DNA of 64,000 nt from Christensenella timonensis (GTDB lineage: Bacteria; Bacillota; Clostridia; Christensenellales; Christensenellaceae): NCBI RefSeq assembly GCF_900087015.1, contig NZ_FLKP01000002.1:1178001-1242000 (forward strand), given 5' to 3'. The notes under the pieces were generated by a model, which made no database searches, was not told where the DNA came from, and saw only the letters and a program-made list of their open reading frames with translations. Positions 1,051-31,500 of the stretch are shown here, one piece after another. The first letter of the stretch is position 1; each line of letters starts with the position of its first letter. A program made the position numbers and the translations under genes.

Positions 1051-1070
1051 TGGTACTGGAATGATGGAAA

Positions 1071-1104
1071 AGCATATCCGGGGAATCGTTTCCCCGGATA
1101 TGCT
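1071..1104 (+). other. Intergenic stem-loop within the WxL operon
   Basis: AGCATATCCGGGG (1071-1083) pairs perfectly with 1092-1104 across an 8-nt loop. No U-tract follows, so an mRNA-processing or stability element is likelier than a terminator. Confidence 0.6.
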
Positions 1105-1128
1105 ACATGAAAAGGGATAGGAGATAAA

Positions 1129-2217: not shown

Positions 2218-2224
2218 AGATACG

Positions 2225-6276: not shown

Positions 6277-6288
6277 GGATATAACGAC

Positions 6289-6317
6289 AAAAGCCGCCCT
6301 TTAATGGCGGCTTTTTT
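6289..6317. terminator. Bidirectional rho-independent terminator
   Basis: AAAAGCCGCC (6289-6298) pairs with GGCGGCTTTT (6306-6315) and is followed by more Ts. It lies between the flippase and recombinase genes, whose 3' ends converge, and can serve both. Confidence 0.92.
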
Positions 6318-6326
6318 GATGCCTGT

Positions 6327-7175
6327 TTACAGGTCTACATCCTCGATTTTGGCACGTTTTTCCGCATTTGAAGTGCGGGTATAGATGCGCGTAGTCTCGA
6401 TGCTTGTATGTCCGAGAATGTCTGCTAAGGCGGTAATGTCGTTATGCTTGTCGATAAACTGTTGTGCAAACAGGTGCCTTAAATTATGGGTAAACAGTTT
6501 GGAACAGGGGATCCCCGCCGGCCCGCCGATATCTTTCAGTTTGCGGCAGATATATTCGCGGCTGATACTCTTGTTGGAGGAAGAACCCCGGAAAATCGTA
6601 CCATGCGTTATGCCGTGCTTCTTGCAATACCGCATCAGCAGGGTGCACAGGGAACTCTTCAAAAGAACGTTCCTGATCTTACCTTTGTTGACGACACGGG
6701 CAGTCCCCTCGTTGATCGCTTCGACAGTGATATATTTGAGTTCCCCCACGCGGATGCCTGATCCGGCGATGGTTCGGATGATGTAATACATTTTTTCATT
6801 TCTTTGTTTGGCAAAGACGAGGAGCCTGTTATATTCCGCGATCGAAAGGCCGTTTTCCACACTGCTTACGTGCTGCAATTTCAGTTTCCGCAGTTTCAGG
6901 TAATCCCAGTGGTTGTATTTAAAGAAACTGTTGAGCGCAGAAATCGCGGTATTGATCGTGCCGGGAACATAGCGTTCCTCCATGTTTTGCCTGAACAGGA
7001 CGATATGGGATTTATCGAACATCCCCACCTTCAGCTCATATTCCAGAAAGTGTGCGAGGTCTTTCACATATTTGGTGTAAAGACGGATGGTTGCCGGAGC
7101 CTTTTCCTGTTCAAAGAGATACTTGGAATATCTTCCCTGGCTCTGCTTTAAATATTCAATTGTGTTTTGCTTCAT
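6327..7175 (-). CDS. Tyrosine site-specific recombinase (XerC/D-like invertase candidate)
   Basis: The 282-residue product has the full tyrosine-recombinase catalytic set: R142 (GSGIRVGEL), a beta-hairpin Lys near 164-166, H230-x-x-R233 (THNLRH), H256 (ILGHTS) and nucleophile Y265 (RIYTR). An N-terminal SAM-like core-binding domain covers about residues 10-95. The length is that of simple Xer-type invertases without an arm-binding domain, unlike most phage integrases. The start at 7175 is set by a perfect AGGAGG (7181-7186) 5 nt upstream; the open frame continues upstream but without family similarity. No phage genes are near. It faces away from the giant surface genes and lies directly beside two palindromic sites in opposite orientation, so its likely job is inverting the DNA between them. 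Confidence 0.88.
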   Translation of the reverse strand: MKQNTIEYLKQSQGRYSKYLFEQEKAPATIRLYTKYVKDLAHFLEYELKVGMFDKSHIVLFRQNMEERYVPGTINTAISALNSFFKYNHWDYLKLRKLKLQHVSSVENGLSIAEYNRLLVFAKQRNEKMYYIIRTIAGSGIRVGELKYITVEAINEGTARVVNKGKIRNVLLKSSLCTLLMRYCKKHGITHGTIFRGSSSNKSISREYICRKLKDIGGPAGIPCSKLFTHNLRHLFAQQFIDKHNDITALADILGHTSIETTRIYTRTSNAEKRAKIEDVDL

Positions 7176-7194
7176 GCTTACCTCCTGTTGTAGT

Positions 7195-7209
7195 TGTGTG
7201 AAACACACA
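7195..7209. other. Short palindrome in the recombinase leader
   Basis: TGTGTG-AAA-CACACA is a perfect inverted repeat 9 bp upstream of the recombinase Shine-Dalgarno. It could be a leader hairpin or operator; function unknown. Confidence 0.4.
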
Positions 7210-7275
7210 TAATAATAGTGGACACAGAGTTTGTATAGATGCTGAAAGAAGTGTAAAAGATATATGAACTTCGCT

Positions 7276-7305
7276 ATTATACCATTGATTTCGATGTATA
7301 CATCG
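7276..7305 (-). promoter_or_regulatory. Candidate fixed recombinase promoter with palindromic operator
   Basis: On the minus strand, 7284-7276 reads TGGTATAAT, a perfect extended -10. Just upstream, where the -35 would be, is the 14-bp perfect palindrome CGATGTATACATCG (7292-7305), well placed as a regulator site. This region lies outside the proposed invertible segment, so the recombinase may be expressed in both orientations. Confidence 0.5.
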
Positions 7306-7337
7306 GTTACTATGAAAAGAAATAATGGATTAAAAAA

Positions 7338-7375
7338 ACAAACGTTCCGTATATATAAATACACGGAACGTTTGT
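7338..7375 (-). repeat. Recombination site A (left end of invertible segment)
   Basis: Perfect 13-bp arms ACAAACGTTCCGT (7338-7350) and its reverse complement (7363-7375) flank a 12-bp AT-rich centre. Read on the minus strand, the central 24 bp match site B (7694-7717 region) with one mismatch, so the two sites are in opposite orientation. The arm length and AT-rich spacer fit a tyrosine-recombinase site. Confidence 0.75.
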
Positions 7376-7710
7376 CGATACTTATCACAATTTTAGATAA
7401 ATTCACCATATCACTTAACATTCTTTTTGTCAACAAAATGTTACAAAATTCTTTCAATTCGCGTCGAATTCTCTTTGTAAAGCCAAAAAAACAATTTTCC
7501 TGAATGAAATTTTCCAAGCCAAAATATTCTGGATTGTTTGGTATTTTGAATAAATATGCAAAATAGATTCATAGAATATTGGTATGCTTTTGAAAGATGG
7601 CATAACAAAGCATTTCAATCTTTGAGAAGGAAAACAGCGGAAGCACCGTGGATTTTGCAATTTAGGGAAAGCGCGTCCGCAGCAAGTGGAGATTCCGTGT
7701 ATTTATATAC
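7351..7710. other. Candidate invertible promoter segment (phase switch)
   Basis: The segment between the centres of sites A and B is about 350 bp, AT-rich, and has no convincing gene; short frames inside look accidental. It carries one excellent promoter on the minus strand (7405-7433) and no comparable one on the plus strand. Because the sites are inverted relative to each other, recombination would turn the segment over. The promoter's -10 would then map to about 7651-7656 pointing right, about 95-105 bp before the TTG start at 7758. The adjacent recombinase supports this reading. As assembled, the surface genes appear to be in the OFF orientation. Confidence 0.7.
7405..7433 (-). promoter_or_regulatory. 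Strong promoter inside the invertible segment, reading left
   Basis: On the minus strand TTGACA (7433-7428, perfect -35) is followed by exactly 17 bp and TATGGT (7410-7405). TG one base before the -10 gives an extended -10. It is the best promoter near either gene and currently reads through site A toward the recombinase. Confidence 0.8.
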
Positions 7711-7717
7711 ACGGAAT
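7692..7717 (+). repeat. Recombination site B (right end of invertible segment)
   Basis: ATTCCGTGTAT (7692-7702) and its perfect reverse complement (7707-7717) flank TTAT. The 24-bp core equals that of site A on the opposite strand with one T/C difference. It lies 41-66 bp before the start codon of the downstream surface gene, so it would be part of its 5' leader. Confidence 0.75.
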
Positions 7718-7757
7718 GGAATACACACGATATATAAGGGCAGGGGAGGCGAACAAT

Positions 7758-9233
7758 TTGAACGGACGTAGCCGGGTGTCAGGCAGATTGCGGACAGCAA
7801 TAGCGGTGCTGTGCGCATTATTTGCGTTATCGTTCACGCCGTATACATTCGCTGTGGAAACACCCCCGCCTTTCGCGGCGGAAACAGAAAGTGCCGATTC
7901 TGTTGATGAAAAAACAATACCGGACAATAATGGTATAGATCATGAAAATTCCATCCCCCCCGCACAAGCAACAGGCGGCAATATACAAATTACAACGATA
8001 GACCAGTTGCAGCGAATCGGACAGGATGAAGCATATCCCCTTGACGGAAATTATGAATTATTGAATGATATCGATGCGCAAAACCTGCCTTTCCAGCCCA
8101 TTGGCTCGAAGGAGCAGCCATTTACGGGCGTTTTTAACGGAAATGGATTTAAATTATCCAATGTCGAAATAAAATCAAAAGATGGGGTTTCGGGAATATT
8201 CGGATATTTTTGTGGCACTCTTTTTAGTTTAGACCTTCAAAATGTAAAAGTCAAGGTTACAGATATAACCGGTACTTTATTTGGAACTGTGGCCGGCGAA
8301 GCGGATGTTAGTAACGTTTTTATTACAGGAGAAATGACCGTTCCGGAAAATACGGAAATTGGGATTGCCGGTGGTTTGGCGGGGGCGATCGAGAGCGCCA
8401 AACGTTTTGAGAAAGCGGCGGCCTTTGTATCGATTCCACAGCAGAATAAACTGACGGGTGCGCTCGTGGGAAAGAGCAGTGCGCCATCAGAAGCGTTCAA
8501 AGATTGTATCTGGTCGTCCGTGTATGGGCAGGATAACGCCTTGGGGCTGGACAGCACGGTGAACGGCTCGGAGGGAATCGGAAAGATCGAGACAGACCCG
8601 AGGTATCTTACATTGATGCTTGGGGATGCGGGGGCGCTGGTTACGGCGAATATAGACCAGGCAGGACAATATGGCCTGGCCTTCAAAAATTTCTTTTTGG
8701 AAGATGAAACTATACTGGAAAAATCCGGTATGAATGATGGAAGCGTGCAAGTGAAGCCCAAAGCGGATATTGGCGCGACGCAGGTAATTGCGGTCTATGA
8801 GAAAGCTTATCGGGACGGGACGAAGGATGAAATCCGTTTTGCAACGCCGGTGATCATCTCAAAAGATATCAACGAGCCGGTACAGCTTGAACCGGTGGAT
8901 CCTGTCTTTCCGACACAAATCGAGGAAGTGAAAAAGCTCGATTCGATCCTGCCGACGGAGATCGAGGATAAAACGGTTGAAATCACGACGTGGAAACAGT
9001 TTAAAAATATCGGCAATACGGCGTACGACGAGCGGTACACCATGGAGGCGGATTATGTTTTGGGGGCGGATATCTTCGCTGACGGTGGGGAATTCAGCCC
9101 CATCGGGACGGAGGAAGATCCGTTTACAGGTACGTTTGATGGAAAAACATACAAGATTGATGTCACGGCAAACCCAGGCATTGATTTTGATGCGGATTAC
9201 AACGGATTGTTTGGGGTAGTAAGGCAGAAATGA
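7758..9233 (+). CDS. GLUG-repeat surface protein, apparently truncated
   Basis: The 491-residue product begins with TTG at 7758, chosen because GGGGAGG (7743-7749) lies 8 nt upstream and a signal peptide follows directly (RLRTAIAVLCALFALSF, cleavage near TFAVE). Upstream in-frame starts overlap site B and lack a ribosome site. A GLUG-type unit follows (DEAYPLDGNYELLNDID ... FTGVFNGNGFKLSN ... GIFGYF), then a beta-sandwich-like region. A second GLUG unit (FTGTFDGKTYK) is cut off after YNGLFGVV. It therefore looks like a shortened relative of the giant protein that follows. Its stop overlaps the next start (ATGA), implying translational coupling. No LPXTG, SLH or WxL anchor is visible. It is the first gene after the candidate phase switch. 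Confidence 0.75.
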   Translation: MNGRSRVSGRLRTAIAVLCALFALSFTPYTFAVETPPPFAAETESADSVDEKTIPDNNGIDHENSIPPAQATGGNIQITTIDQLQRIGQDEAYPLDGNYELLNDIDAQNLPFQPIGSKEQPFTGVFNGNGFKLSNVEIKSKDGVSGIFGYFCGTLFSLDLQNVKVKVTDITGTLFGTVAGEADVSNVFITGEMTVPENTEIGIAGGLAGAIESAKRFEKAAAFVSIPQQNKLTGALVGKSSAPSEAFKDCIWSSVYGQDNALGLDSTVNGSEGIGKIETDPRYLTLMLGDAGALVTANIDQAGQYGLAFKNFFLEDETILEKSGMNDGSVQVKPKADIGATQVIAVYEKAYRDGTKDEIRFATPVIISKDINEPVQLEPVDPVFPTQIEEVKKLDSILPTEIEDKTVEITTWKQFKNIGNTAYDERYTMEADYVLGADIFADGGEFSPIGTEEDPFTGTFDGKTYKIDVTANPGIDFDADYNGLFGVVRQK

Positions 9234-12200
9234 TGAAAGACTTGAGAAGCGTTAAAGGTTCAAAAGTCACAGATAAGAAAAGAAACAGGCGGGAACGGGT
9301 CAGAAGTATGACGGCGTTCTTGTTGGCGTTCGCGCTGATTTTCAGTATCGTGCCGACGGCGATGGCGGCTGAACTGCCGACGCAAATATCGGAAACGCAA
9401 GAATTGGAACCTTTAGGAAGCGAGGATATCGCAAACGGCACGAACGCATGGGAAAACGGCGTGCCCAAACAGTTACCCAAGGCGCAGATCAACAATTTGA
9501 ATGTGGTATCCTCGGCGGACGTGAAAGCGGCAGCGGATGCGGACGGGCGTATCCAGATCGACAGTTACGAAAAATTTAAGCGCATCGGGCACGACCCTGC
9601 CTACCCGCTTGACGCCTCGTACATCCAGACGGCGGACTTCAAGATACCGGACAATACCACCCATACGCCTATCGGGGACGGCAATACGCCGTTTACAGGT
9701 ACTTATGACGGCGGCGGGCATACCATCACCGGCGGACAAAATTTAGAAATGAACGTTGTATATCATAACGATTATGGTTATGCGGTTGGTTTGTTTGGAT
9801 CGGTGCAAAAAAATGCAAGGCTATGCAATTTTACGGTTTCCAATGTTGAATTCGCCGTATCATATACACAACAGGATATATCAGGCAATGATGTTGGCTA
9901 TACAGGTATTGTCATGGGTGCGGATCGCGATGAACCTGTCATAGAAAATATCCATGTGCAAAATTGCGGCGTCAGCGTTACTTCGGATTCAGTACGACTT
10001 GCGACCGGAGGTTTTGCGGGTTATGCTGCCGGAACGATCAAAGACTGCACCGTCAATAATACTTTCGTATCACATACAGGAGGCGCTGGAGCCACGCAAT
10101 ATCTGGGCGGCATGTTTGGAATTGGTAATGGTGGAACTGCATGGACGGTGAATAATTGCCATGTGAACGGCGGGCATGTCGAAGCGTTGAATGCCGAAAG
10201 CGGAAGTATATTAGTATCAGGATTTAGCGGGTCAACGGGAGGAGTCTACTCGGATTGTTCCACATCAGCGGATCTATACGCAGATACATCAAGCGATGTT
10301 TCGTTAGGCGGTTTTTTTTCGGCGCTCGCAGGAAATTCGCACATTACAAATTGTATTTCTACGTCAAAGATTTCCTATAATACAGCAAAGCCGCCCGCCA
10401 GATTATATCTTGGGGGCTTTCTGGCATCCGCCAGTTCAAACACAGCAGGCATGCAGCTTGAAAATAATTTGGCGATCAATTCCATCGAATATACTTTCGC
10501 GGGGAGCGGGGCCGCGGACGGGGGCAATATAGGCGGTTTTGTCGGACGACTTTCGGTTGCTCCGTCAGCATCTACTTTCAAAGGAAATTATTATTTCAAT
10601 AACGGCGGCGGTAATCTTCAAAACCGTACCGGAAAACTGGGCTCCTACATTGATGGAAATGAATTTGTAGACGCGGGCATTCATAAACTCGACACTACTG
10701 CCGAAGTTAGCCCTTTCCCCACGGAATTGAAATTTACTTCCCTGAACGCTCCCGCAAATATTTATTCCATGGGAGATATATTTGGTTATACGGATGTTTC
10801 GTATTCCATCAAAGACGGTACGGACCCACAGAACGCTTTTTCGCTCACTAATACGGCGGGCGATACGTCGCAATTGACGCAAACAAAGGCCGTCGCGCCA
10901 AACGAGCTGCCGACAGTTGTGGTGACGTATAACCGTGTCGGCGCAGCGTCTATTATAAAGGAAATCCCTGTTACAGAAGCGGTAATCGCCGTGCCGGACT
11001 ATGAGACATTTGCCAAAATCGGGCAGGACGCGGCCTATCCGCTTTCGGGCAGTTATTTGCAGACGGCGGACTGGACGATTCCCGACGGCACGACACATAC
11101 GCCGGTTGGTAACGCGACCACGCCGTTTTTGGGTACTTATGATGGCGGAGGCCGCATAATTACAGGCAGCGCAGGGTTTAAAATTAACAAAGCTATTGCG
11201 GGCGACGGTTCATATGAAATTGGTATATTTGGACATACTGCAAAAGCAACAATTAAAAACCTTACAATTAAAGATATTCATGTTGAGCAAACAGAAACAG
11301 ATATTGAGTACTGTGGGATACTGGCCGGATTCGTGCAGGGAACCGTTGAATCTGTAACGATAGTTGATTCCAGTATCAAGGTCAACATTACAAATACTGC
11401 CATAGCCAAAAATATAATAGTAGGTGGTTTAATAGGCATGGGCGTTGAAGCCACCATGAATAATTGCGTGGTAAAAAATACCAACGTAGATGTCACACCA
11501 GTCATTGGAGGGGGCAATTATGCCTATACCGGTTTACTTGCGGGCGTAGTAGCGATCGGAAATATAAATAACTCTGTTGGAGATGGCGGAACTGTTAAAG
11601 TGGATAACGCTGCATATCCGGGGGGAACCGTTCAGGGAAGCGTAATCGGGCAGATTGACTCAAATGTAAAAATTGCAAATACACACTGTTATAATACGCA
11701 AATTATAAGAGACGGCAACGCAACAACAAATTTCATAGGAGGCTTTGTTGCTGTAGAGGTAGGCGATAGTACAACTTTTGCAATTAGGAACTGCTCGACA
11801 ACCGCAACGTCGACCGCAAATGGAACAGATGGAGTATGCGGTGGTTTTATTGGTCGGCACGATATTACTGCTGCAAATATGGAAAACGCGTTTGTGAATA
11901 ATACGTTTACCGCTTCCGTGGGATATACAAATAAGGTTGGATCATTTTCTGCTACCCAGGATGGGGCGATCACCGATAATATGATCAAGCTCGTATCTGA
12001 CCCAACCCTCGCTACTCTCACCATCCAAAACCTCACCACTTCGCCCACGTCAACGCAATGGCTGAATGCGGCGGGAACCATGGACGTTTCGGCGGAAGTG
12101 ACCAGCACGCTTTCAGATGCGAAATATGTATTTATTGCAAGCAGCGAGGATGCGGACAGCTCTTCGGCGCTTATGATGCTTTCCGCAAACGGCGACCGCT

Positions 12201-15200
12201 TCACGGGTACGATCCCCGCAAGCGCGATGGAAAACATCATCGGCAGCGGTACGCTCTACCTGTGCGCGCAGACGAAGAACACAAGCGGCGCCCAGACCGC
12301 GCGCGCATCCCAGCCCATTACGGTTCTGCGCGATCCTTATTCGCCGCGCTTAAGCGGTATCAACAAAGAAGATATGCAGGACGGCACGATAAACATTTCG
12401 CTTAGCGCAACGGACAGCCAAAGCGGCGTTGCGGGCGTATATGCGGCAGCCTCAGATACGGACTATACGGCGGGACAGGTCGCCCTTACCTATAACGACA
12501 CGACAAAAAAATGGAGCGCGGCGCTCCCGGGCGGCACGTGGTATTTGTACGCCAAGGATAACGCGGGGAACATCAGCGCAGCTCCTGAAAAGATCGAAGC
12601 GGCGGTATCCGACTGGATTCCGGTCTATGACTATGACGATTTTAAAAAGATCGGCGTGGAAAAAGGCTATCCGCTTTCAGGAAAATATATCCAGATGGCG
12701 GACTTTAAGATCCCCGACAGCACGGTTCATACGCCAATAGGCAATGCGGACGCGCCTTTCGCCGGAATTTACAACGGCAACAATAAGACCATCACCGGCG
12801 GCAGGAATATGACGTGGAACAGCGTAGTATCAAAAACAGGAAATCTGTTCCCGGCGGCATATGCGACAGGACTATTCGGAGTCATGGATGGAAAGGTAAG
12901 CAGCCTTTCGTTAGATGGGTTTACGATCATCAATAAAAGCGCGCCCGCAGGGCAAACCTATATCGCCAGTTCTCTGGCGGGCTGTGTCGGTGGCGCGGTT
13001 GAAAACGTTACCGCTCAAAATATCACGATTGAAATCAACTCGGCCGCAACGGAATCGGATCGCGGCGGTAGGGCAGGCGCTCTGGCCGGTATCGTTATGG
13101 GCAGTAGTGCGAGCCTGAAGAACTGTCTTGTTGAAAATATTTCCATTGATATTGTGACTCCCGCTGCGATGATCAGTGCCGGCGGTCTCTGCGCGATGCT
13201 GATAGATGGCGCTTATGCCATAGACTGCACGGCGGCAAGCGGAACAATTAACGCGGGAGCCTGCCAAACCACGGGCGTAGGCGGCTTGATCGGCCATGTA
13301 TTCAGCGCAAAGGTAGAAAATTGTTACTCATCTGTGGATAGCGTAAACGCGGGGCTGACGTCTCCTGCAAACCTTATGTCGGTTGGCGGCCTGATCGGTC
13401 TGCAGTCAGATACCTATGCTGCCTCGTCGACGATCAATCATTGTGTTTCCAGCGGAAATATCACTGCTGTTCCGGCTTATGCAACTACAGCGAATGCCTA
13501 TCGGATCGGCGGTTTTATAGGTACGATCGCTGTTGCGACAGGTACGCCACTGGCATCGAATAACGCTGCATATGGCAAAATGAATATCACTGGCAACAGC
13601 GGCGGAGTCGGAAGCTTTTTCGGCGTTACAAATTGTACGACAGTGTCCTTTGCGGGGAACGTATGCGTAAACAATGGTTTTGGGAAAAGCGGATCGAGCT
13701 ATCCGGTTGCGGGGCTTACCGATAGTCATATCCGTTTTGTGGCAACGCCTGAACCCTCTGTTACGGACCTTAACATGCAGGAGTTAAACAGGGATTATAA
13801 TATCTCCTCTGCGGCGGAAGCGTTCGGCTATACCGCAAAGTGGAGCGTTGACAACCCGAAGTTTGAGCTTAACGCCACGGCAGGCGACAGCGTCTCCGTG
13901 CGGCAAATGGAGCCGCTTTCTTCGCCGGACGAAGCAGCGAATATCATGATCACTTACCAAAAGGGAACGACTTCAAGCGCCGCAACGGTTTCGCTCAAAG
14001 GCGTGATCGGCGTGCCGGATTACGATACCTTTAAATTGATCGGAAAAGGAAATTATGGTCTTGAACGTGGTTACTACCAAACGCAGGACTTCACCATTCC
14101 AAATAATACGGTTCACACGCCGATCGGAAGCTACGCCGCGCCATTCACGGGAACCTATGACGGCGGAAATCATACGGTAAAGGCAGGAGTTATTAGTTAC
14201 AATCTGGCGAATATTGTGCAAAATGATTTGAAAGGTGCATCGCTGTTTGGGACGGTAAGCGGGGGATTGCAAAATATCAATGTTGAAGGATTACACTATA
14301 CCTCTACTGCCGTAGAAGGGCAATATGTTGCAACAATAGTGTCAAGTCTCAGAAATGGAGGAAGACTTCTCAATTCGCATGTAAGAAATTGTGTATTGAA
14401 TATCGACACCGTTTCCTATGGCGGACTTATAATGAGCGCAATCGTGGGACATGCTTTTGATAATGCATATATCGAAGGATGTTCAGCTAATAATGTCACG
14501 CTAGAATCAAAATCGAAAGTAACAGGAGACGTTATAGTTGGCGGAGTTGCGGGCGTCAATAGAAGTTCCACAATAAAGAATTCAACAGCAAATACAAATA
14601 TTGATATTTCAGAGGGTTCTATTACACAAGGTTCTACTATAGTTGGCGGTTTCGTGGGGGATGCCCATGACAATGGACAGACAATCGATTGGCTGATCCA
14701 AAATTGTTCGGCAGATGGAACGATAGCTGTAAATGGGCTTGTAGGCACAACAACTTGTGGGGTTTATTTAGGAGGTTTTGCAGGGCATACCCAGCAAAAT
14801 TTTATGCCAGCCAGTCCTAAAATAGTAAACTCTCGGACAAACACTACGATTTCAAGCGATCTAATTGATGGTTCAGCAGTATTGATAAAATGTGGCGGTT
14901 TTATAGGCGGCAATGATATGGTGACGACCAAATCTGCGGCTGCATACTCCGGCAATACTTATACTGCAAGCTGTAAATATCCTAACCGCGTGAGCGCGAA
15001 TTCCACCACGCCGGATACAGGCAGCAATTTTGACGATTCCATGATCAAACTGATCGACGCTCCCATCACCATCAGTAACCTTATGCTCGACCCGCCGGAG
15101 GGCGCGTGGGCAAACGCGTCGCAGGGCGTAGGCGTACAGGCGGACGTCAAAACCACCTCGGACGTCACGGGCACGGTGCAAGTGTTTGTAGCGGCGGACG

Positions 15201-18200
15201 CAAACGAAACAAATCCGGCGAACGGAACGGAAATTTCAAAATCAACGAATCTTTTCATGCCGAATACATATAAGCTCGCGGGCGGCGCAGACGGCCTTTT
15301 TGGTTCGGGCGCCATGTACCTCATCGCGCAGGACGCGGACGATCCTACGGCCCGCCGCGCGACATACGGGTTTAATATCCTGCGCGACCTGTATTCACCG
15401 CGCATGGAAAACCTGTCGGCAAACAAAAACAACGCGGGAGGTTTTGACGTGAGCCTGGACGTGACCGATTCCCAGTCTGGAATGGGCTATGTTTTCGCGT
15501 CAAAAGATGCAAGCAATCCGGCGGAAGCAGGCAGGGTACAGCTTGCAAAGGCTTCTGACAATACGAACGCATGGTCTGGAAGCGTCGCCGTTCCGGCAAC
15601 GGGGGAGAAATGGTATATCTATGCGGTGGACAAGGCGGGCAATATGAGCACCGCGCCGCTTGTGGTGGATGACAGCGTCGCCGGACGTATCGAGATATGG
15701 ACGTACGACGATTTCAAGAAGATCGGCGTTGACCCTGCCTATCCGCTTTCGGGCAATTATATCCAGATGGCGGACTTTGTGATCCCTGACGGAACGACCC
15801 ATACGCCCATCGGCGACAGCGCAACCCCCTTCACCGGAACCTACGACGGCGGCAGCCACACCATCACCGGCGGCAGAAACATGACATGGAATACGGTTGG
15901 TGAAAAAAAGGCGGTAGGTTTATTTGGATATACTTCTGGCGTAGTAAAAAATCTGGATATTAAGGAATTTGATTTAGCGGTAGGCAATATTGAGCTTGTT
16001 GGTATCGTCGCGGGGCGATCGTCTGGCAAGTTAAGGAACGTACATGTAAAAGACAGCAGCGTGACAATCAGCACGATGGAAAGCATCAATCTGATTGCGA
16101 GCGGCGCCCTTGCCGGGGACATTCAAAACGGGGTTGTGACAGGATGTACTGCCACAAATGTGAACGTTAGTGTGGACGCGTCAGGAACAACATATATCTG
16201 CGCGGGTGGATTGTTTGGCGGCACAAATAACTCCGAAGCCATCGAAAATTGCGCCGTGACAGGAGGGGCGGTTGACACAAATGGAACGCAGACAGTATAT
16301 ATTGGCGGTTTTGTTGGCTATGCGTCTGCAAGCAAGTATTCAAATTGTAATACATCGGCAGACGTAACAGACATCGGCGGACTTGCGACCCAGCTCCGCG
16401 CGGGTGGGTTTGTCGGATCGGTTCAAAATAGTGTTTCCACATTTAACACCTGTACCACAACAGGAAAAGTTACATCGAATGGAAATAATACGGTTTCCTA
16501 TTTTGGCGGTTTTGCCGGATGGACTTTGAATGCTGCTCTCCGCTTTGAAAATTGCTCGACAACGGGTGCGATGAGCTATGCGGGCAGTGATACAAAGTAC
16601 TGTGCGGGATTTGTCGGTGTGAACTGGATGAACGCAGCTGCGGTGAAAAATGCGTTTAAGGGTAATACATATGTAAGCGCACAGTATCCCCGCGTAGGCA
16701 GTGGTTCAACGACCAATGAAACCAATGCGCCGGATGATATCAACGATACGACGATTCATATTTTGACCGACGCAGCCCCCACCCCCTCGCCGGTGAATAT
16801 CAAGACCCTTAACACGCCCGTCACGGTAGATTCCGTCGGCGACGACTTCGGTTATTACGGCGTAAAATGGGAATTTGAATATCCGGACTCTGTGAGGGAA
16901 TATTTCACGCTTTCGGCGGCGGAAGGCCAGCAGGTTAAGGTGACGCAAACGAAGGCGTGCCCCGCCCCGGCGGAGGTAACGCTTAAGGCAACGTATTCCA
17001 AAGTTGGGTATAACGACATTGCAAAAACGGTCAAGGTACGCGGCGTGGTCGCCGTGCCGGATTACGATACCTTTAAAAAGATCGGGGCAGATACGCAAAA
17101 CGGCTATTCGCTTGACCGGAGCTATTACCAAACGCAGGATTTCGCCATCCCCGCGAACACGGTACATACGCCGATCGGGAACCATATTGCTTCTTTCAGT
17201 GGAATTTATGATGGCGGTAATCATACGGTTACAGGCGGCGAGGGAATGAGCGCGGTTCCAACAACAGGTAATTCAGCAAGCGTATATACGATGGGGTTGT
17301 TCGGACATTTTACAGGTACGCTGAAAAACTGGAATGTCAAAAATGTGAGTATCGCCAACACGTCGAAAGAAACAAATTGGGGCGGAGTTGTCATTGGCGA
17401 CCTGATAAACGGAACAACAGAAAACGTTAGAGTCAGCGATTCCAAAGTAGAAATATACACCAGCGCAAACAACGGCCAAGCAGGCGCGCTGGTGGGTATC
17501 TCGCATGACGTCAATTCCATCATTAGAAATTGTACGGCAAAGAATAACGATGTCAAAGTCAATTTCAATAACGCCAGTTACAGCGCATTTGCGGGTGGAT
17601 TGGTTGGTTGTAACCAATATGGCGCGCAAATCTATGATTCTTCCGTTATCGGAGGGAATGTATCGGTCAATGGCAGCGCTATCGCAATTGAATCGGTTGG
17701 AGGATTGGTTGGAGAAAGCAACAGTAAGTTTACCATCGATAATTGCCATGTTGATGGAACGATCGTTTCGCTTGCAGGGAAGCTTGCAGCCACCGCAAAC
17801 CTAGGGGGATTTATAGGCAGTATCGATAGCGATTCAGCAGGACAGACGGTTACGAATTGCAGCACAACAGCGCAGTCGAGCATAAATGGGACGGCTGGAC
17901 GCGGCGGTGGATTTATTGGATACCATGTTATGACAACAGCAAACGCACAGGCAGCGTTTGCGGATAATACATTCAGTACGTCTGTCGGATATGCAAATAA
18001 GGTGGGAGCCTCGTCAGCGACGGTTGACGCCAATATCAGCGACAGCATGATCCGTCTTATCGATGACAACAACATCACGATTTCAAATATCACGCTCGAT
18101 CCGGCAGCGGATATTATCTGGATAAACGGAAACCAGAAGGTCGGCGTGAAAGCCAATGTCGCAAAAAGCAACGGTGTAACGGGTGATATTAGCGTATTTA

Positions 18201-21200
18201 TCTCGTCCGATCCAAATGCGGTAAGCGGAACGAATATGCGCGTCACTCCGGACGACGGCGTTTACGAGCTTGCGCAGGCGGCGGGCCTTATGGAAAGCGG
18301 GACGCAGTACGTAATCGCGAAAAACGCGGACAACAGCATGCGTGCATCTGCGCCGTTTACAATCCTGCGCGACATATATTCTCCGCACATCAGTAACGTA
18401 CAGCAACAAACGACGCAGGACAGACAAAATGTCAGCGCGGCTGTGATCGATTCGCAGTCGGGCGTTGCAAAGGTGTACGCCAGCCAGAACGCGACAAACG
18501 CGAAGCCGGAGGATGCGGGCAGTACGGCATTTGACCGTGTCGCGGCGGGCGATATATGGTCGGGTGTGCTTTCCGAAGGCACATGGTATATCTACGCGAT
18601 CGACCGCGTAGGTAATTTCAGCGATGTGCCCATAAAAGTGGATGTTAAGGCAAGCGGCTGGATACCGATCTATTCGTATGCGGATTTCAAGAAGATCGGC
18701 GTGGACGCGCTCTATCCGCTTGACGGCAAATACATCCAGATGAACGATTTCAAAATACCCGACGGCACGGAGCATACGCCGGTAGGCAATAATAATGCAG
18801 GCGAATACTTCACGGGAATTTATAACGGCAACCATTGCACGATCACCGGCGGAAAGAACATGACGTGGAAAGTGGTCGGAAGCGCAAAGCTGACTGGCCT
18901 GTTCGGATATATCGGTTCCGGAACGGTGATGGATCTATCCATACGCAAGGTCGCAATTGAAAGTACGGATGTGCTTCAGGCAGGGATTTTAGCGGCAGCG
19001 ATGGGTTCCGCAAAAATAAGCGGCGTATCAGTATCTGATAGCGCCATCAAGTGCGATACAAATACGACGGAGCAAACTTTTTTTGGCGGTCTCACAGGAA
19101 GCGTGTCGGCAAGCAGCTTTGAAAAATGCACTGTTGACGATACAAATATCGAAACGGTGAATGCACAGGTCAATATTGTACGCGTGGGCGGTTTCATTGG
19201 CTACGGCAGTCAAAGTACATTTACGGATTGCGCCGTGAACGGCGGTACGTTTAACGCGGCTTCGTCAAAGATCGCAAATGGACATTCGATCCTCGGTGGC
19301 TTTACAGCCGGAGGCCATGACGTTGTCTTCCGAAACTGCTCTACTTCCGCAGACGTACACAACGGCGGTTCCTATAACGTATATACCGGCGGCTTTGGCG
19401 GACTCGTGAGCAAAAGCACGACGGGGGAACTGGTATTTGAGAATTGTACCGCGTCCGGCAATATCACGACGGAAGATGCGTCGGGTCTTCAGGAAGCGGC
19501 CGGTTTTGTATCGACACTTGCCACAACCGCTTCAAAAGCAGGCTTCGTTAAGCCATTGTTCCAGAATTGCGCTGCCTTGGGTAAATTTGTGAAAATTGGC
19601 TCGGCCGGATTATCGAGCGTAATATCGGGGAGCTTTAATGGGCGCAACAGTATCATCTTGGATTCGACAGAGACTGCCGATTATGCGGGCGTTTTTGTGA
19701 ACAACGTCTGTACCAACACGACTTATGGGAAGGTCGCGCTGACCAATGCGTACAACGCCACCAATAATGCCGATATTGATAGGGGCATCACACTGCTCGC
19801 AACTCCACAGCCGTCTGTCTCTATCCTCAACATACACGAAATGGATAAAGATTACACGGTGCAGGGCGCGGCGCAGGCCTTTGGTTATACCGCGCACTGG
19901 AGCATCGATAATCCGAAGTTCCAGCTTTCAAACGTAGTTGGCGACAACGTAAATGTGCGCCAGTTAGTCCCGCTTGCAAACGGCAACGAAAAAGCAACGC
20001 TTACGGTCACCTACAGCAAAGCGGGGCAGGCGGATATTACGGCGGCGGTGGATATTCTCGGTGTGATTGGCGTACCTGATTTTGCCGCATTTGAAAAAGT
20101 CGGCAAAGATACCGCGAACGGCTACAACCTCGACCGCGGCTATTTGCAAACTGCGGATATTACCATTCCAGATAATACGGTGTGGACGCCGATCGCGCCC
20201 ACGGAAGCAACAAAATTTTCGGGAATATATGATGGCGGGAATTATACGCTTTATGCCCGGAATATAAGCTTCCCGGCAACAGGAAACGTCTATCCAAGCG
20301 GCGATATTTCTGCGTCAGCGCTGTTTGGTTGCGTCTACGGAACGGTTCAAAACATTACGGTATCCGGCCTGAAATATATGGCTGCTAATTTATCGCGTAA
20401 TCAAGAGGTTGCGCCGTTGGTCGCATTTCTTGGTACCGATGCGAAATTGATTAATGCGCACAGTAAAGATTGTACGCTCGATATGGGAGCCTATACAGGA
20501 TATCTCGTTATGGGTGGACTAGTAGCCGAGATGTACGATTCTTATGCAGAAAACTGTTCAAGTGATAACGTCACACTGATTGGGGGAACAACCGGAACAG
20601 GGGGTAACGCTTTTATTGGCGGGTTCCTTGGTTCAATGGATACCTGCACAGTAAAAAGCTCAACGGCAAACGCCAATATCACCTTGAATGGATCAAACAG
20701 CGGCCAAGTGTTTTTGGGTGGCTTTGGCGGCGCGGGGAATTCTACAAATGGGCCATGGCTGTTTGAAAATTGCAACGCCTCCGGTTCGATCACTGCAAAT
20801 GAAACTTTTAATGGCGCAAACGTGCAAGGGATTGGCGGATTTATCGGTTCCGTGTGGATGCCTACGACGTGCGCGGCTTCCATAAAGGATTGTTCTACTG
20901 TAACTCATATAACGAGTACGGTTGTCGATGGAAGCGTTACAAATGTCAAATGTGGTGGTTTTATAGGAAATAACGGACTTGTTTCCCTGACAGATAATGT
21001 ATATAGCAATAACACGTATACTGCGGCATGTAAATATTCCAATAAAGTTGGAAAAACTTCATCGGTTCCCGACGCTTCCATCACCGACTCGATGATCCGC
21101 CTCTTGGGCGACGACATCGAAATCACCGACATCCAGCAATATCCGGGCTATTGGACAAACGCGGCGGACGGCAGGACGGTCACGGCGACGATCAAGGCAA

Positions 21201-24200
21201 ACGGCACAAGCGTTATCGACGAAACCAATGTATTTGTTTCGGACGACCCGCTGAGCATCACGAACGCAGTTCCAATGACGCGCATTGCAGGAACGGATAC
21301 CTTCACTACGGCAGACGGCGCGCTGAAACTGGGCGGCAAAATGTATGTGGTGGCGAAGGATTCCAATAGCGGCGGCGCGCCGACATATGTGGAATTTGAA
21401 TCGCGCGTGGACGCATATTCGCCCGCAGTGGAAAGCATCACGGTAACGGAAAATATCGGAGACGCGCAGGATGTGGCGGCCAAAGTGCGCGACAGCCAGA
21501 GCGGCGTATCCCGCGTGTTCGCGTCAAGGGAGCTTGGCGCGGCGGACGGCGTGGAGCTGGAATTGGACAGCACGGCGGAAGCGGACGGCAGTCTCGTTAC
21601 ATACAGCGTGAAAAAGCTGGCGGCGGGGGACTGGTATTTGTACGCGGCGGATAACGTAGGCAACTTAAGCGCGGAGCCTACGCCGTTTACGGTAAGGGAC
21701 ATCGAGGATATGTCCATTGGGGATATTTCGCAATATTGGGACGGCCTCGGCGCGGGCGAAAGCGTAACGCCGCTCATAGAGAATAACCGCGCAATGGTGT
21801 GGTTTGGCAGCTATAACCAGACGGGGGAGAAGGAATCGCCCGTGCTTTGGCGTACTCTGGAATCGGGCAGCAGCGAAACGATGCTCATGACGGAATATGT
21901 ACCTGCTGCGGTACGCTATGACGATCTCGATGCATCGCCGGTCAATTTATACTGGGCAAATTTTAATGGCATAAACAGTGGTACACGCGCATGGATGAAT
22001 AATTTGCAGGGGCGCACGGTAGATTACGCATCCAATGGATTTTTGAATAACGCGTTTTCAGAAACCGAAAAAGCGTTGACGCTGAATACGATCGTTAAGC
22101 CTCCCGACAAAGACGGCGAGGCGTGGGGTTATGGTATCCCAACAAGCGATAAACTGTTCCTTTTAAATTCGGCACAGGCAACAGATCCAAAATATTATAA
22201 AGACGCGGCGGCCAGAAAAGTACTGGCGACCACGGACACAAAGAATAAACTTATGGCAGATGGCTACACTTCGGAAGTTACTGCGGATGGATATATACAT
22301 TACTATATTCCGGAGCCGTTCTCCTCGGCGAAATATAATCAGGTAAGTATCATTAATCAAGCCGGTAATATCGTGGGAGCAACTGCTTCTTTGTCGGTTT
22401 GTATACATGGCGTGCGCCCCGCGACAAACCTCGACAGTTCCTCGATCATGCTTGTCGCGGCAGGAAACGACGGCAGCGCGCCGCGCACAAGCGGAACGCT
22501 GACCGAGACAACGGGCAGCGCACCGGACTCTTTTGATACGGTTTACGGCAGCGATTCGCAGACGTTCCGTGTGTTTGAGCGCGTAACGGACGGCAGCCTC
22601 ACGATGGGCAATATCAACGGGGATGTCCGCACGGCGCTGGCAGGCGATATGCTGGACGTTTCATACGAGGGAGCAACGCGCTCGAAAATTGGCGCGGATA
22701 TTTACGCGGGCGTACTGCTTGTCAATAAAGTGACGCACGAGAAATACCAGGCGCGGTTACAAAAAATCACGGATGAAAACGGTACGCTGCAAATCACGCT
22801 GCCGTCCGGCCTTGCAAGCGGCAGCTATGCGATGTTCCTATGGGCAGAGAACGAACAACAGCGCAAGGCGAGCCAGCCGGTGAAATTTACGGTGAATATC
22901 GGGCAGGCAAAAGAGGAAACCGCGCCGGTTTTGAGCAACGGTACGCAGGTTCCGGCGGCGGGAACGAAAGCGCCGACCAAGAATATCACGATTACGGCAA
23001 GCGACGCAAGCGGGATCAGCAATATTTTCGTGGCGACGAACCCCGGCGCGATGAGCGGTATTTCCATGACGGCAAACGGCGGCAATGTGTATGAAAGCCA
23101 AACACTGTACACGAACGATACATACTATGTCATCGCCTACGATGTATTCGGAAACCGCAGCGTGTCCGGCGCAATCCCGGTATCGGACATCGGGATGAGC
23201 GACGGGAACCCGCCGGTGATCACGAACGGGAAGCAGGAAACGGACGAACTCAAAGCGGAAAAGAATGTCACTGCGGACGTTATGCGCGGCAGCGCGGAGA
23301 TTACGCAGGTCTATGTGACGGAACGCGACAACTCCACGGGCATGGAAACAGGCGATGTAGAGATGCAAAAAACTGGAAGCGGGGATGCCTACCAGACGGT
23401 ATCCGCGCTGAAGAAGAACGGCGTCTATTACGTGGTGGCGTACGACGCAGAGGGCAACCGCGCGGAAGTGCGCGTGCTTGTGGATAAGATAGAATTGGTG
23501 TCAAAAGACGATATTAGTACGTACTATGACGGGATCGTGAACGGCATGGGTACGGCGGCACGCGCGATGGTATGGTTCGGCGGATGGCCGCAGTCCGCGC
23601 CTGCGGCTACGGCAAACGAGCCTATGCTTTGGCGCACGCTGGAAAGCGACGCGGGCAGTATCACGCTTCTTTCTGAATACGCGCCGTATACGTCGTATTT
23701 TGATAAGGATACGGGCAATTATAACCAGTTCTGGTACAACAACGCAAACAAGGTATCGAGCGATATCCGTGCGTGGATGAACGGCGGCGCGGGTATGGTA
23801 TCGGATGGCAATTACAGCAGGTATATCAAAAGCGATACGACGTATCCTTCGTTCTATATCAACGCGTTTGGGGCAGAAGAGAAGGGATTGATCCTGCCGA
23901 CAAAAATCACGACAGAGGCGGGGAATGCTGCTGCGTGGGGCGGCCTATATGGGAACAACGGACAGGCGTATTCGGTGTTTGACAAGGTATTCGCGCTTTC
24001 GGCAGGCGATACGAAAGATGTCAAATATTTTGCGGGCGATACGGATTTAAAAACGATTATTACACCCAATGCAAGCAACAACGGAGCCAATAATAGTTAT
24101 ACGTCGGTTTATGGAACAATGACTGGAAAAGCTGGATATCACTACAATAATTATGGGTACTGGTTTACGCGCTCGCCTTATGATGGGACGGCTCACCAGG

Positions 24201-27200
24201 TTCATGCCGAGGGATATACCAGCGCAAGCGGATATATAGCGGATCATAATGCAAATGTAACCAATAATGACGCGGCGGCGCGTCCCGCGATTAACCTCGA
24301 CTCGTCGGCGGTGGTCTTCACGGCGGCAAGCAATACGGGCGGCAGTCCGGCAGTGCTGGGCGAGGATACGGCGCTCGTCAAGGCGGCGGGAGACGCGCCC
24401 TCTTCGTTTGCTTTAGCATATGGGACGGACAGCCAGAGCTTCCGTGTGTTCCGGCGCGGCGGACAGGAAATGACGCTGACGGCAGGAACGGGCTATGGCG
24501 GCGTGGATACGGTGACCTTTGATTATACGGGCGCGACATATGGACGCGACAACTATATTTCGGCAATGCTGGTGAATACGGCGACGAAAGATAAATGGAC
24601 GGGGCGGATCGCAAAGGTTACGGCTGCTGATGGCAGCGTAACGGTCAAGCTGCCCGTCAACGTAGGGGCGGAAGGGTACCGCCTGTATATATGGAACGAG
24701 AGCGAAGCGGATAAAAACACAAGCGAACCGATGATGTACGCGCTTGACCAGATGGGGCCGGAGATCGTGAGTGTGACGAATTTATACCGTGGGGCGGTAA
24801 ACGAAGAATGGACAAACGGCGAAAAGACGGTAGAAGCGGTCGTTAGGCCGCGCAGCACGGCGGTGGACGATGCGAAAGTATATATCGCGGACAGCATCGA
24901 CGCGGAGCCAAGCGCGGCAACGAACGTTTTTCTGTCGAAAAAGGCGGGCGCAGAGAATACCTATGAGGCCACAAAGGACGACTGGGTAAACGGCGGGCAG
25001 AAATACCTGATCGCGTACGACACGGCAGGCATGCGCAGCGCGTTTAAGTTCACGCTGTATGTGGATAAGTATTCGCCGAATATCTCAAATGTCATGGTGG
25101 GTAACGAACCGTCAACTTATGTACAATATGTTACCGCGCAAGTAATTGATACGCAGTCGGGCGTAAACCCGTCGCGCGTGTTTGCGTCGCAGGAATATAA
25201 AAATGCTGTGGACGGCATTTTGTTCACGCAGACAGTAGGAAGTAACCAATATACGGCGATGATTCCGGCCGGAACATGGTATATCTATGCAGTAGATAAC
25301 ATAGGCAATATCACAGACGAGATGAGCGTCTACAAGATCGAGGTGACGGGCACGGAAGATCCATCTATCGGGGATATTTCGCAGTACTATGACGGGATTT
25401 CCAACGCTACGGGCGCGCTCGACGAAGCAAACCGCGCGATGGTGTGGTTCGGCAATTTTATGCAGGGCGCCGATGGCACGCGGCATCCACTGCTATGGAG
25501 GACATTGGAGAGCACCACCGGCAGTACCATACTGATGACGGAATACAACCTCATTTCCGGTAATGTGCATAACAATACAGCCTCTGGAAACGAATACATA
25601 CTGAGCAATGTCAGGGGATGGCTGAACAGCTATTTGGTGACCGACTTTGATTTTTCAGGGGCGGATCAGGGATTTTTGAATAACCTGAACGACGCAAATA
25701 AAAATTTGATTATGACAACTGCTCTCGCGCCGGAAAGCTCAGCAGCCACGACACTGTATGACAAAGTATTTGCCATCAGCAATACCGAGCTTTATCGATA
25801 TTACGACGGGGATATTACAAAAAGTAGAGCGATGGGAACGGATTGGGCAAAAACAACCAGTTATTCGGGCGGCAAACTTGAAGACGCGGACGGTTATTCC
25901 GCTTACTGGCTGCGCACGCCGTCAACGGAATCAAGCAGACTTAAAGTAGCTGGGGCGATCAACTTCTCAACGGAAATATCTGTGGAATCCTCAACGATCG
26001 GGCTTCGGCCTGCTGTTAATCTTGACCCAAATCAGGTCATATTAACGGCCTCTGGTACGTATGGCGATGCGCCTTTAACTGTGGGGAGTACGCTCACGAA
26101 AGTTACAGGCGCTGCTCCTGATAGCTTTAGTATAAATTATGGAGCTGATAGCCAGTCGTTCCGTGTCTTTGAGCGGGACGTCAATCTTACGCTTGGTACG
26201 ACGACAGCCAAACGCGTGATCGCAGAAGCGGGAAATACGGTGCGTATCGACTATTTCGGTGCGAGCGCGTCCGACCAGAATTACTTCAATATGCTGCTCG
26301 TGGACAAGACGAGCAAGGCAAAGTGGCAGGGGCGTATCGCGCCTATCACGGCTACAAATGGATATGCGGAATTTATTCTGCCGGCGGATCTGCCGGACGG
26401 GAGCTATGCGGCGTTCATCTGGAACGAGAATGAAGGAACGAAGAAAGCAAGCGAGCCTGTGAAATTCAGCGTAAACATCGGCAGCATACCGGAAGATACG
26501 CAGCCGCCTGTGATCGCAAACGAAGCGCAGCAGCCGGCGGACGCGGCGCAGGTCAAGAAAGTTGCGGCGGACATCACGGATAACATCGGCGTGACGAACG
26601 CTTTTGTTTCCATGGATCAAAACGCGCTTGCGGGAACGTCGATGACTCCCGTGGGATCGGGTAACCAATGGGAAAGCCAGAACATCTATTATGAAGGGAC
26701 ATATTACATTATCGCGTACGACGCGGCGGGCAACCGCGCGGTGTCGGGCCCGGTGGTGGTATCGGATATTGCCAACCCGAACATACCTGTTATAACAAAC
26801 GTGAAGCAGGTGGACAACGCAGTGGCAAACAGCCGCGCCGTGCAGGCGGACGTTGCGTGGAGCAGCGGGGCAACGGGACAGCGCGTGTTCGTTGCGTCCG
26901 ACCCGAACGCAACGACGGGGATCGAATTGGTGCTTTCGGCGGGCGATACCTATGTATCGGAAACGGGCGTGGCCAAAAACGGCACATGGTATATCATCGC
27001 GGTGGACAGCAACGGAAACCGCGCGAGCGCGCCGGTGTATGTGGATAAGGTGTCCACGGTACTGCCGACGGACGTGAGCACGTATTATGACGGGATCGTG
27101 AATGGCAGCGCTACAGATAAAAGAGCGATGGTATGGTTCGGGAATTACCCGCAGAGCAGCGCAAGTGCGAACGAGCCGATCCTTTGGCGTACAGTAGAGA

Positions 27201-31129: not shown

Positions 31130-31500
31130 TCGCGGGCAGTTACAACAAGGGCGTTGTGCAAACGACAAAAACGGGCGCGGCACAAAACCTGGGCGGTATC
31201 GTGGGCATAGCGGCAAACGGCTACGTGCAGGTGCACGATACCTATAATGCAGGTATGCTCAAAGCGGCCGCAGCAGGAAACTTTGTGGGCGGGATCGCCG
31301 GAAACGGCGGAAGCGCAACTTTCACGAATAACGGCTGGGACGGCGATGTGGGCGGCGCCTCATACGGCGTGGGCGCCGGAAATGCCGCCGGCACGGACAG
31401 CGGAGCGCAAAAGCTTGGAAAAGCGGATATGCTGGGGCAGCTTTTCGGCCTGGACGCCGGGATATACACGGCAATCACGGCGCCGGAGGCGGATTACCCG
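28780..31500 (+). repeat. Three ~0.9-kb C-terminal GLUG modules
   Basis: Units begin near 28780 (IYTEEDLRD), 29689 (IRTEEDLKD) and 30620 (VASEADLAA). Each has 'F.GSFDG.GY', 'GLFGYV' and several 'GGIAG' turns. The third unit crosses the frameshift. Confidence 0.8.
31099..31108 (+). other. Apparent single-base deletion (frameshift) in the giant gene
   Basis: The GLUG reading GGIAGSVGGAA is in the upstream frame until about 31104. From about 31105 the downstream frame reads ASASARAVIAGSYNKG, a perfect continuation of the module. Restoring one base here (giving GCC GCC instead of GCGCC) joins both into one frame of about 7,782 residues. No heptameric slippery sequence is visible, so a sequencing error or real mutation is likelier than programmed shifting. 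Confidence 0.8.

What the first reader, a model, noticed from the sequence alone, without database searches (positions are those of the whole stretch)
7338..7717. Invertible promoter next to a tyrosine recombinase: candidate phase switch for a giant surface protein
Two palindromic sites (7338-7375 and 7692-7717) share a 24-bp core with one mismatch and are in opposite orientation. Between them lies one excellent promoter (TTGACA-17-TATGGT with extended -10). A complete tyrosine recombinase gene ends the system on the left and a surface-protein gene starts 41 bp to the right. Recombination at the two sites would turn the promoter around and place it about 100 bp before the surface gene.
Basis: partly seen in the sequence, partly recalled or inferred. 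Interest (0 to 1): 0.93.

Follow-up and report, generated by a model that had tools for sequence, protein, structure and literature searches.

The report
Flippable promoter for surface-protein genes
A gut bacterium appears to carry a small DNA segment that its own recombinase can flip, turning the promoter of a very large surface-protein operon on or off; this kind of switch is known, but this one has its own site sequence, an unusual layout and a recombination site that doubles as a stop signal for transcription.

Summary
Two 24-bp sites (7345-7368, 7693-7716) are 23/24 complementary and unique in the genome. Between them lies one good promoter pointing left, away from the surface gene. An intact tyrosine recombinase gene sits on the left; a surface operon (491 and 7,299 aa, GLUG-type) starts 41 bp to the right.

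Best reading: an invertible-promoter phase switch, here in the OFF orientation. Comparative support is strong. Related recombinases of Clostridia (33-45% identity) have such an inverted pair beside them in 71 of 87 loci (control 2 of 75). In 54 of 54 pairs found by arm sequence alone the 4-bp centres are exact reverse complements, 41 of them distinct. One pair of relatives shows the segment flipped between collinear flanks.

Added here: the left site is also an intrinsic terminator for the OFF promoter, and modelled inversion weakens its stem. In 28 of 60 relatives the corresponding site is flanked by a run of A that would suit such a terminator.

Against: three congeners carry 53-54% recombinases without adjacent sites; the site motif is absent from 395 other genomes of the order; without reads, inversion here is inferred. 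New variant of a known kind.

The parts
6327..7175 (-). tyrosine recombinase gene, 282 aa, with all six catalytic positions (R142, K166, H230, R233, H256, Y265)
   Evidence: PF00589 1.8e-20; these columns invariant in 11 aligned members; the catalytic role of the residues is recalled knowledge of the family
7176..7331 (-). leader of the recombinase gene, outside the invertible segment; contains promoter-like TATACA-17-TATTAT (7237-7209)
   Evidence: (leader partly conserved in three congeners)
7345..7368 (+). left recombination site (core TTCCGTATATATAAATACACGGAA), inside palindrome 7338-7375
7332..7376 (-). predicted intrinsic terminator built on the left site: 18-pair stem, 4-nt loop, then a run of T; acts on leftward transcripts
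   Evidence: (-25.6 kcal/mol in the present orientation, -12.6 after modelled inversion)
7369..7692 (.). predicted invertible segment, 324 bp between the site cores
7405..7433 (-). promoter TTGACA-17-TATGGT with TG before the -10, pointing left, away from the surface gene (OFF orientation)
7693..7716 (+). right recombination site (core TTCCGTGTATTTATATACACGGAA), palindrome 7692-7717, no T run after it
7758..9233 (+). first gene of the switched operon: 491-aa GLUG-like exported protein, TTG start
   Evidence: homologues at 45-48% at three places in two congeners; no Pfam match on its own, (GLUG-like by eye)
9230..31129 (+). second gene: 7,299-aa giant repetitive surface protein (GLUG, DUF6273, Peptidase_M26_N-like stretches)
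31126..32577 (+). 483-aa frame that continues GLUG-like sequence in another frame directly after the giant gene

Best explanation
This is an invertible-promoter phase switch. The adjacent tyrosine recombinase binds the two palindromic 24-bp sites and exchanges strands in the asymmetric centre, flipping the 324-bp segment. In the orientation of the assembly (OFF) the single good promoter fires leftward, and its transcript ends after about 60-70 nt at an intrinsic terminator made from the left recombination site plus a run of T outside the segment. After inversion (ON) the promoter faces right and transcribes the 491-aa gene and the giant 7,299-aa surface gene from a 94-nt leader that contains a hairpin without a T run. 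The same flip removes the inner half of the terminator's outer stem. Shown: sites, promoter match, terminator match, intact recombinase, the family association, one natural inversion in the family. Inferred: that this recombinase acts on these sites, that inversion happens in this species, and the ON/OFF assignment.
For: Site pair far beyond chance and unique. Intact recombinase. In 94 recombinase loci (the window's included) chosen by protein similarity alone, an inverted pair lies within 1,200 b downstream in 71 of 87 with enough sequence; control stretches 2 of 75 (there L053's hit is a run of N, but, whose seeds skip N, again finds 71, and one search finds no N in L053's arms). Sites found by arm sequence only, without looking at the centre: 54 of 54 pairs have exactly reverse-complementary 4-bp centres, 41 distinct, against 1.6% between loci. 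The window follows this rule (ATAA/TTAT). L115 and L123: segments 83% alike over 107 bp in inverted orientation while the recombinase end and the downstream TetR-type gene align in the same orientation. Terminator on the left site: 18 pairs then T, stem energy halved by modelled inversion. In relatives an A run outside the left site in 28 of 60 against a T run there in 0 of 60. Among clear strong promoters in relatives 38 point to the recombinase and 14 to the target. PMC11892184 (sections 6 and 8 read, other passages by term search) reports, from reads, changing orientation in an inverton group, 32 of 33 from Clostridia, linked to a tyrosine recombinase group.
Against: No reads, no second isolate, no opposite orientation seen at this locus. 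Three congeners with 53-54% recombinases have no inverted pair scoring 15 or more within 1,200 b; a wider look found one 17-bp pair 3.8 kb apart around one of them, which proved to be the tails of two unrelated terminators (by eye). In all, 16 of 87 family loci lack a pair (this includes the window, whose pair is on the other side). The window's site motif is not found in 395 other genomes of the order, so the pairing with this recombinase rests on adjacency. The recombinase does not nest inside the site-bearing clade: it branches between the site-less Christensenella trio and the rest (weak support 83/31 at that fork). Here the site pair lies 5' of the gene, in the relatives 3'. A runs are also frequent just inside the left site (20 of 60), so part of the A signal may be plain A-richness. 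The A run does not go preferentially with left-pointing promoters (18 of 38 against 9 of 14, p 0.36).
Confidence: 0.85

Rival explanations
1. Two operator palindromes for a repressor (perhaps the recombinase itself used as a DNA-binding protein), with no DNA inversion; the promoter between them serves a short leftward transcript.
For: Both sites are palindromes, and palindromes alone would match each other in both directions (21/24 direct, 23/24 inverted). Three congeners keep the recombinase without site pairs beside it.
Against: Operators need no matching centres, yet the centre here is exactly reverse-complementary, as in 54 of 54 family pairs. A natural inversion is seen in the family. The catalytic residues are intact.
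Confidence: 0.06
2. A switch locked OFF in this strain: it was functional in ancestors, but the recombinase or the mismatched left site no longer works.
For: One mismatch between the cores; only one orientation is known; the genus also carries a paralogue that has lost catalytic residues.
Against: This recombinase keeps all six catalytic positions, the mismatch lies in an arm and not in the centre, and several family pairs also have one or two mismatches between their arms.
Confidence: 0.06
3. Two ordinary hairpins (a terminator at the left, a leader hairpin at the right) that are alike by local duplication.
For: The left one is a good terminator match and the right one a stable leader hairpin.
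Against: It does not explain the inverted, centre-matching arrangement, the flanking recombinase or the family pattern.
Confidence: 0.03

Closest known systems
Invertons of Clostridia linked to a tyrosine recombinase group (inverton group 139 / invertase group 35, PMC11892184; abstract, sections 6 and 8 and term passages read)
   Same: Nearby tyrosine recombinase, repeats of 14-26 bp around a segment of roughly 200-230 bp in the two examples whose coordinates I saw, class Clostridia, orientation changing in reads. My family with ACATAAT-N4-ATTATGT sites probably is this group, but I did not see its motif (it is in a supplement).
   Different: The window has another site sequence (TTCCGTGTAT-N4-ATACACGGAA), the segment on the 5' side of the recombinase, and a recombinase outside the site-bearing clade.
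Clostridioides difficile cwpV switch, RecV (PMC2784873; abstract and passages read)
   Same: Imperfect 21-bp inverted repeats upstream of a large cell-wall protein; an intrinsic terminator at the edge of the segment proposed to form in the OFF orientation only.
   Different: There the promoter lies outside the segment; here it lies inside, and the terminator stops the promoter's transcript in the wrong direction. That RecV is not encoded beside cwpV is recalled; RecV was not compared here.
C. difficile cmr switch (PMC8844915; abstract and passages read)
   Same: Promoter inside the invertible segment, active in the ON orientation only.
   Different: Further promoters and a riboswitch; different target; recombinase RecV acts on several sites.
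E. coli fimS with FimB/FimE, and Bacteroides promoters with Mpi (mostly recalled; fimS also described in a listing and in a passage of PMC2784873)
   Same: Invertible promoter of about 300 bp, tyrosine recombinase, surface structure as target.
   Different: Other hosts, other sites; recombinases only distantly related (NCBIfam tyrosine-type DNA invertase match of P0001 1.2e-4, 21.7 bits against a cut-off of 222). Mpi was not compared.

Membership tests
Tyrosine recombinase / phage integrase family (Pfam PF00589) | Catalytic-domain profile match and R-K-H-x-x-R-H-Y residues | tested here: met
   PF00589 E 1.8e-20 above its cut-off; the six residues invariant in alignment A2; solved relatives XerC-like, XerA, XerD, XerH
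Housekeeping XerC/XerD/XerA equivalogs | NCBIfam curated cut-off score | tested here: not met
   132.9 bits against 220 for XerA, 93.2 against 335.15 for XerC, 92.8 against 329.6 for XerD
Invertible-promoter phase switch (inverton) | Inverted repeats flanking a segment with a promoter directed to a neighbouring gene in one orientation | tested here: met
   (promoter by consensus only)
Invertible-promoter phase switch (inverton) | Both orientations found in DNA of the species | not testable with these tools
   no reads or second isolate of the species found; motif only in the own genome among 396
Invertible-promoter phase switch (inverton) | Recombinase that acts on the repeats | tested here: inconclusive
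   adjacent and intact; family association 71 of 87; action itself not testable here
Clostridia recombinase-adjacent inverton family with ACATAAT-N4-ATTATGT sites | Palindromic sites in inverted pairs with reverse-complementary centres | tested here: met
   window 10-4-10, centre ATAA/TTAT; family 54 of 54
Clostridia recombinase-adjacent inverton family with ACATAAT-N4-ATTATGT sites | ACATAAT-type arms | tested here: not met
   window arms TTCCGTGTAT; 33 of 87 loci also lack such a pair
Clostridia recombinase-adjacent inverton family with ACATAAT-N4-ATTATGT sites | Segment directly 3' of the recombinase gene | tested here: not met
   window segment lies 5' of the gene
cwpV-type terminator switch | Intrinsic terminator that forms only in the OFF orientation | tested here: met
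   prediction only: -25.6 against -12.6 kcal/mol
cwpV-type terminator switch | Promoter outside the inverted segment | tested here: not met
   promoter inside, 7405-7433

The most novel reading that the evidence does not exclude
The recombination site itself is a directional transcription terminator: in the OFF state the invertible promoter fires into its own crossover site, and only that orientation assembles the long stem next to the fixed T run, so the flip swaps the promoter and weakens the terminator in one step. The A run outside the recombinase-proximal site in 28 of 60 relatives suggests a widespread double lock in Clostridia. Here the blocked transcript would otherwise be sense RNA for the recombinase, so leak through the terminator could tie recombinase dose to the OFF state and bias switching.
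Probability: 0.4. Interest if true: 0.7.

Novelty: new variant of a known kind. Interest (0 to 1): 0.55.

Why it matters
Christensenellaceae are heritable gut bacteria whose abundance goes down with body mass index (PMC6819567, title and start of abstract seen in the listing). Searches for the genus together with phase variation or invertible promoters (10 of 48 papers listed) showed, by title and abstract start, no paper on such a switch in it. A flip that turns a giant surface protein on or off would make clonal cells differ in what they show to host, neighbours and phages. The family result gives a simple genomic rule (recombinase, palindromic site pair, reverse-complementary centres, A run at the near site) with which such switches can be proposed from single assemblies without reads.

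Tried and rejected
Site motif elsewhere: none in 395 other order genomes, none in viral contigs; looser hits in four congeners are scattered places, not pairs. Switch beside the surface-gene homologues of congeners (L149, L151, L153): no inverted pair scoring 15 or more. A capsule-locus recombinase in the same genome (L033) was compared in three species for opposite orientation: segments identical. A 17-bp inverted pair around a congener's recombinase (L037) was two terminator tails. The idea that the A run goes with left-pointing promoters: not supported (p 0.36). Rfam: nothing at 6000-9500; tRNA: none in the window. Structure prediction was not used, since sequence identified the protein.

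Rows dropped: one search used 60 of 71 pairs (11 arms not palindromic enough). One search left out 33 of 87 loci without an ACATAAT-type pair and took the best-matching pair in 9 loci with several. One search dropped L053 and loci without a clear strong promoter (52 counted; an earlier count without that cut was 46 to the recombinase, 19 to the target, 6 ties). Targets: 67 of 71 loci had a gene to look at; the count of exported-looking ones (33 of 67) was made by hand from the table with a crude hydropathy rule; background 48 of 177, p 0.0014. For some searches each target was cut to at most 500 codons.

Full report
WHERE. The window is G000:C2:1178001-1242000 of a genome of 2,650,850 bases in two contigs. 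Table 1 of PMC8289216 (passages read) gives exactly this size and contig number for 'Christensenella timonensis' Marseille-P2437, and 2,560,186 bases in one contig for C. massiliensis, which fits the contig of G001. The names are inferred from these numbers.

OBSERVATION. The two sites, their orientation and their uniqueness are confirmed. Random sequences like the 582-base intergenic stretch never exceeded 19 of 24 paired bases in 200 trials; the site pair has 23. The promoter has a perfect -35, 17-base spacing, 4 of 6 in the -10 and a TG extension, and is one of three sites of that quality in 64 kb. It points left. The rightward strand of the segment has no comparable promoter in the scans. 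The gene starting at 7758 encodes a 491-aa exported GLUG-like protein; it overlaps by 4 bp a gene for 7,299 aa with GLUG, DUF6273 and M26-like stretches. Homologues of the 491-aa protein (45-48%) lie at three places in two congeners. In two of these they are separate genes just before a second long gene (L151, L153), in one part of a very long frame (L149).

The left palindrome is a good match to an intrinsic terminator for leftward transcripts: 18 pairs, 4-base loop, then T. Folding gives -25.6 kcal/mol for this element. If the segment is turned around at the centre of the sites, the hairpin at the same place falls to -12.6, because the inner half of the outer stem moves to the other end; the ON leader has a hairpin without a T run and is 94 nt long from the predicted start. 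So the OFF promoter would make a transcript of about 60-70 nt. These are predictions from consensus and folding.

FAMILY TEST. Within 1,200 b downstream of the recombinase, 71 of 87 loci with at least 400 b there have an inverted pair scoring 15 or more;'s set of 71, 63 are from the 80 named loci and 8 from the others, with identities of 33-45%. Upstream it is 5 of 92, one of them the window. Random stretches of the same contigs gave 2 of 75. Most sites look like ACCACATAAT-N4-ATTATGTGGT, by eye. To avoid favouring matching centres I then searched for the arms alone: 54 loci gave a pair 150-420 b apart, and in 54 of 54 the four central bases are exact reverse complements, with 41 different centres; between loci this happens in 1.6%. 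That is what strand exchange with spacer homology demands, and operators or hairpins do not. Thirty-three of 87 loci had no such pair.

NATURAL INVERSION. Among 71 segments, six pairs are alike enough to align (E up to 1e-6); four align in the same and two in the opposite orientation. For L115 and L123 the recombinase end and the following TetR-type gene align in the same orientation while the segment is reversed. The flanks of the other pair (L056, L067; 68 bp) were not checked. PMC11892184 reports, from reads, invertons of Clostridia (group 139, 33 members, 32 from Clostridia) linked to one tyrosine recombinase group, with orientation changing over time in examples (sections 6 and 8 and passages). 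I take it that this is the same family, but its motif is in a supplement that I did not see.

TERMINATOR IN THE FAMILY. Among 60 palindromic pairs, an A run lies just outside the recombinase-proximal site in 28 and a T run there in 0; the signals that would make terminators at the other three flanks number 7, 8 and 12. A runs just inside the near site number 20, so the flank is A-rich in general. Clear strong promoters point to the recombinase in 38 and to the target in 14 of 52 loci. So a possible leftward terminator at the near site is common, though it is not tied to the present promoter direction (p 0.36), as one would expect if the direction flips.

TARGETS. Of 67 downstream genes, 33 have an exported-looking start (hand count) against 48 of 177 other genes in the same loci (p 0.0014). 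Pfam finds TetR regulators in 6, GGDEF in 3, SLH in 2, pectate-lyase-like adhesive domains in 2 and many others once (first 25 of 80 families shown). Surface proteins are thus a common but not the only cargo.

HOW THE WINDOW DIFFERS. Its arms are unlike the family's, and the motif is absent from 395 other genomes of the order. Its segment is 5' of the recombinase, so the OFF promoter points in the sense direction of the recombinase and the terminator stands between them. In a tree of 97 rows, rooted at the midpoint, the recombinase branches between three Christensenella recombinases without sites and the other 90 rows, most of them site-bearing (98/93 for the 90, 83/31 for the fork with the window). 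The three congeners' genes are 53-54% identical, have no inverted pair of score 15 or more within 1,200 b and are followed by a TetR-type gene (by eye). They may act elsewhere or do something else; this is the main evidence against a simple story.

VERDICT. An invertible-promoter switch for a giant surface-protein operon, most likely real (0.85), seen in the OFF orientation, a new variant of a known kind. Inversion in this species is not shown.

Noticed in passing
window 31085-31140 and 31126-32577: The 7,299-aa frame ends inside a GLUG-like stretch and the repeat continues in another frame from an overlapping GTG without an obvious ribosome-binding site (by eye): a frame break, by sequencing error, mutation or programmed shift. 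Described only.
   Followed up: partly
L033 (G000:C1:109000-121000), L038, L039: A second family recombinase with an imperfect inverted pair (GAATAATGATTCTG..) before a UDP-glucose/GDP-mannose dehydrogenase gene; about 11.6-11.9 kb is 99.9% identical in three genomes of the genus, so recently shared.
   Followed up: partly
L034, L041, L042, L043, L044: A recombinase paralogue in five of the six genomes of the genus. In the three copies aligned (L034, L042, L044) four of six catalytic positions are changed (R142, H230, H256, Y265), which suggests a DNA-binding protein without catalysis. L041 groups with L034 in the tree; L043 was only matched.
   Followed up: partly
L149 5126-6322, L153 1995-3080: In a congener, homologues of the surface genes are preceded by another integrase-like gene (by eye; resemblance of its N-terminus to Tn916-type integrases is recalled), without strong inverted pairs nearby.
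   Followed up: partly
L151 4581-6429: In another congener the surface genes are preceded by a ParB-like and a PAPS-reductase-like gene (by eye), a pair resembling IbrB/IbrA (recalled).
   Followed up: no
window 469-4543: WxL-domain protein, WxL-interacting protein and a pectate-lyase-like adhesive protein lie upstream: a second surface cluster next to the switch.
   Followed up: no
L049, L099: Two family switches stand before helicase/ResIII-type genes (by eye; one search counts two ResIII members), which would fit phase-variable defence genes.
   Followed up: no
L115 2200-2800, L123 5800-6300: Each of these loci has an extra copy of the site (ACATAACGAGAGTTATGT or its complement), so more than one inversion or deletion could occur.
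   Followed up: no
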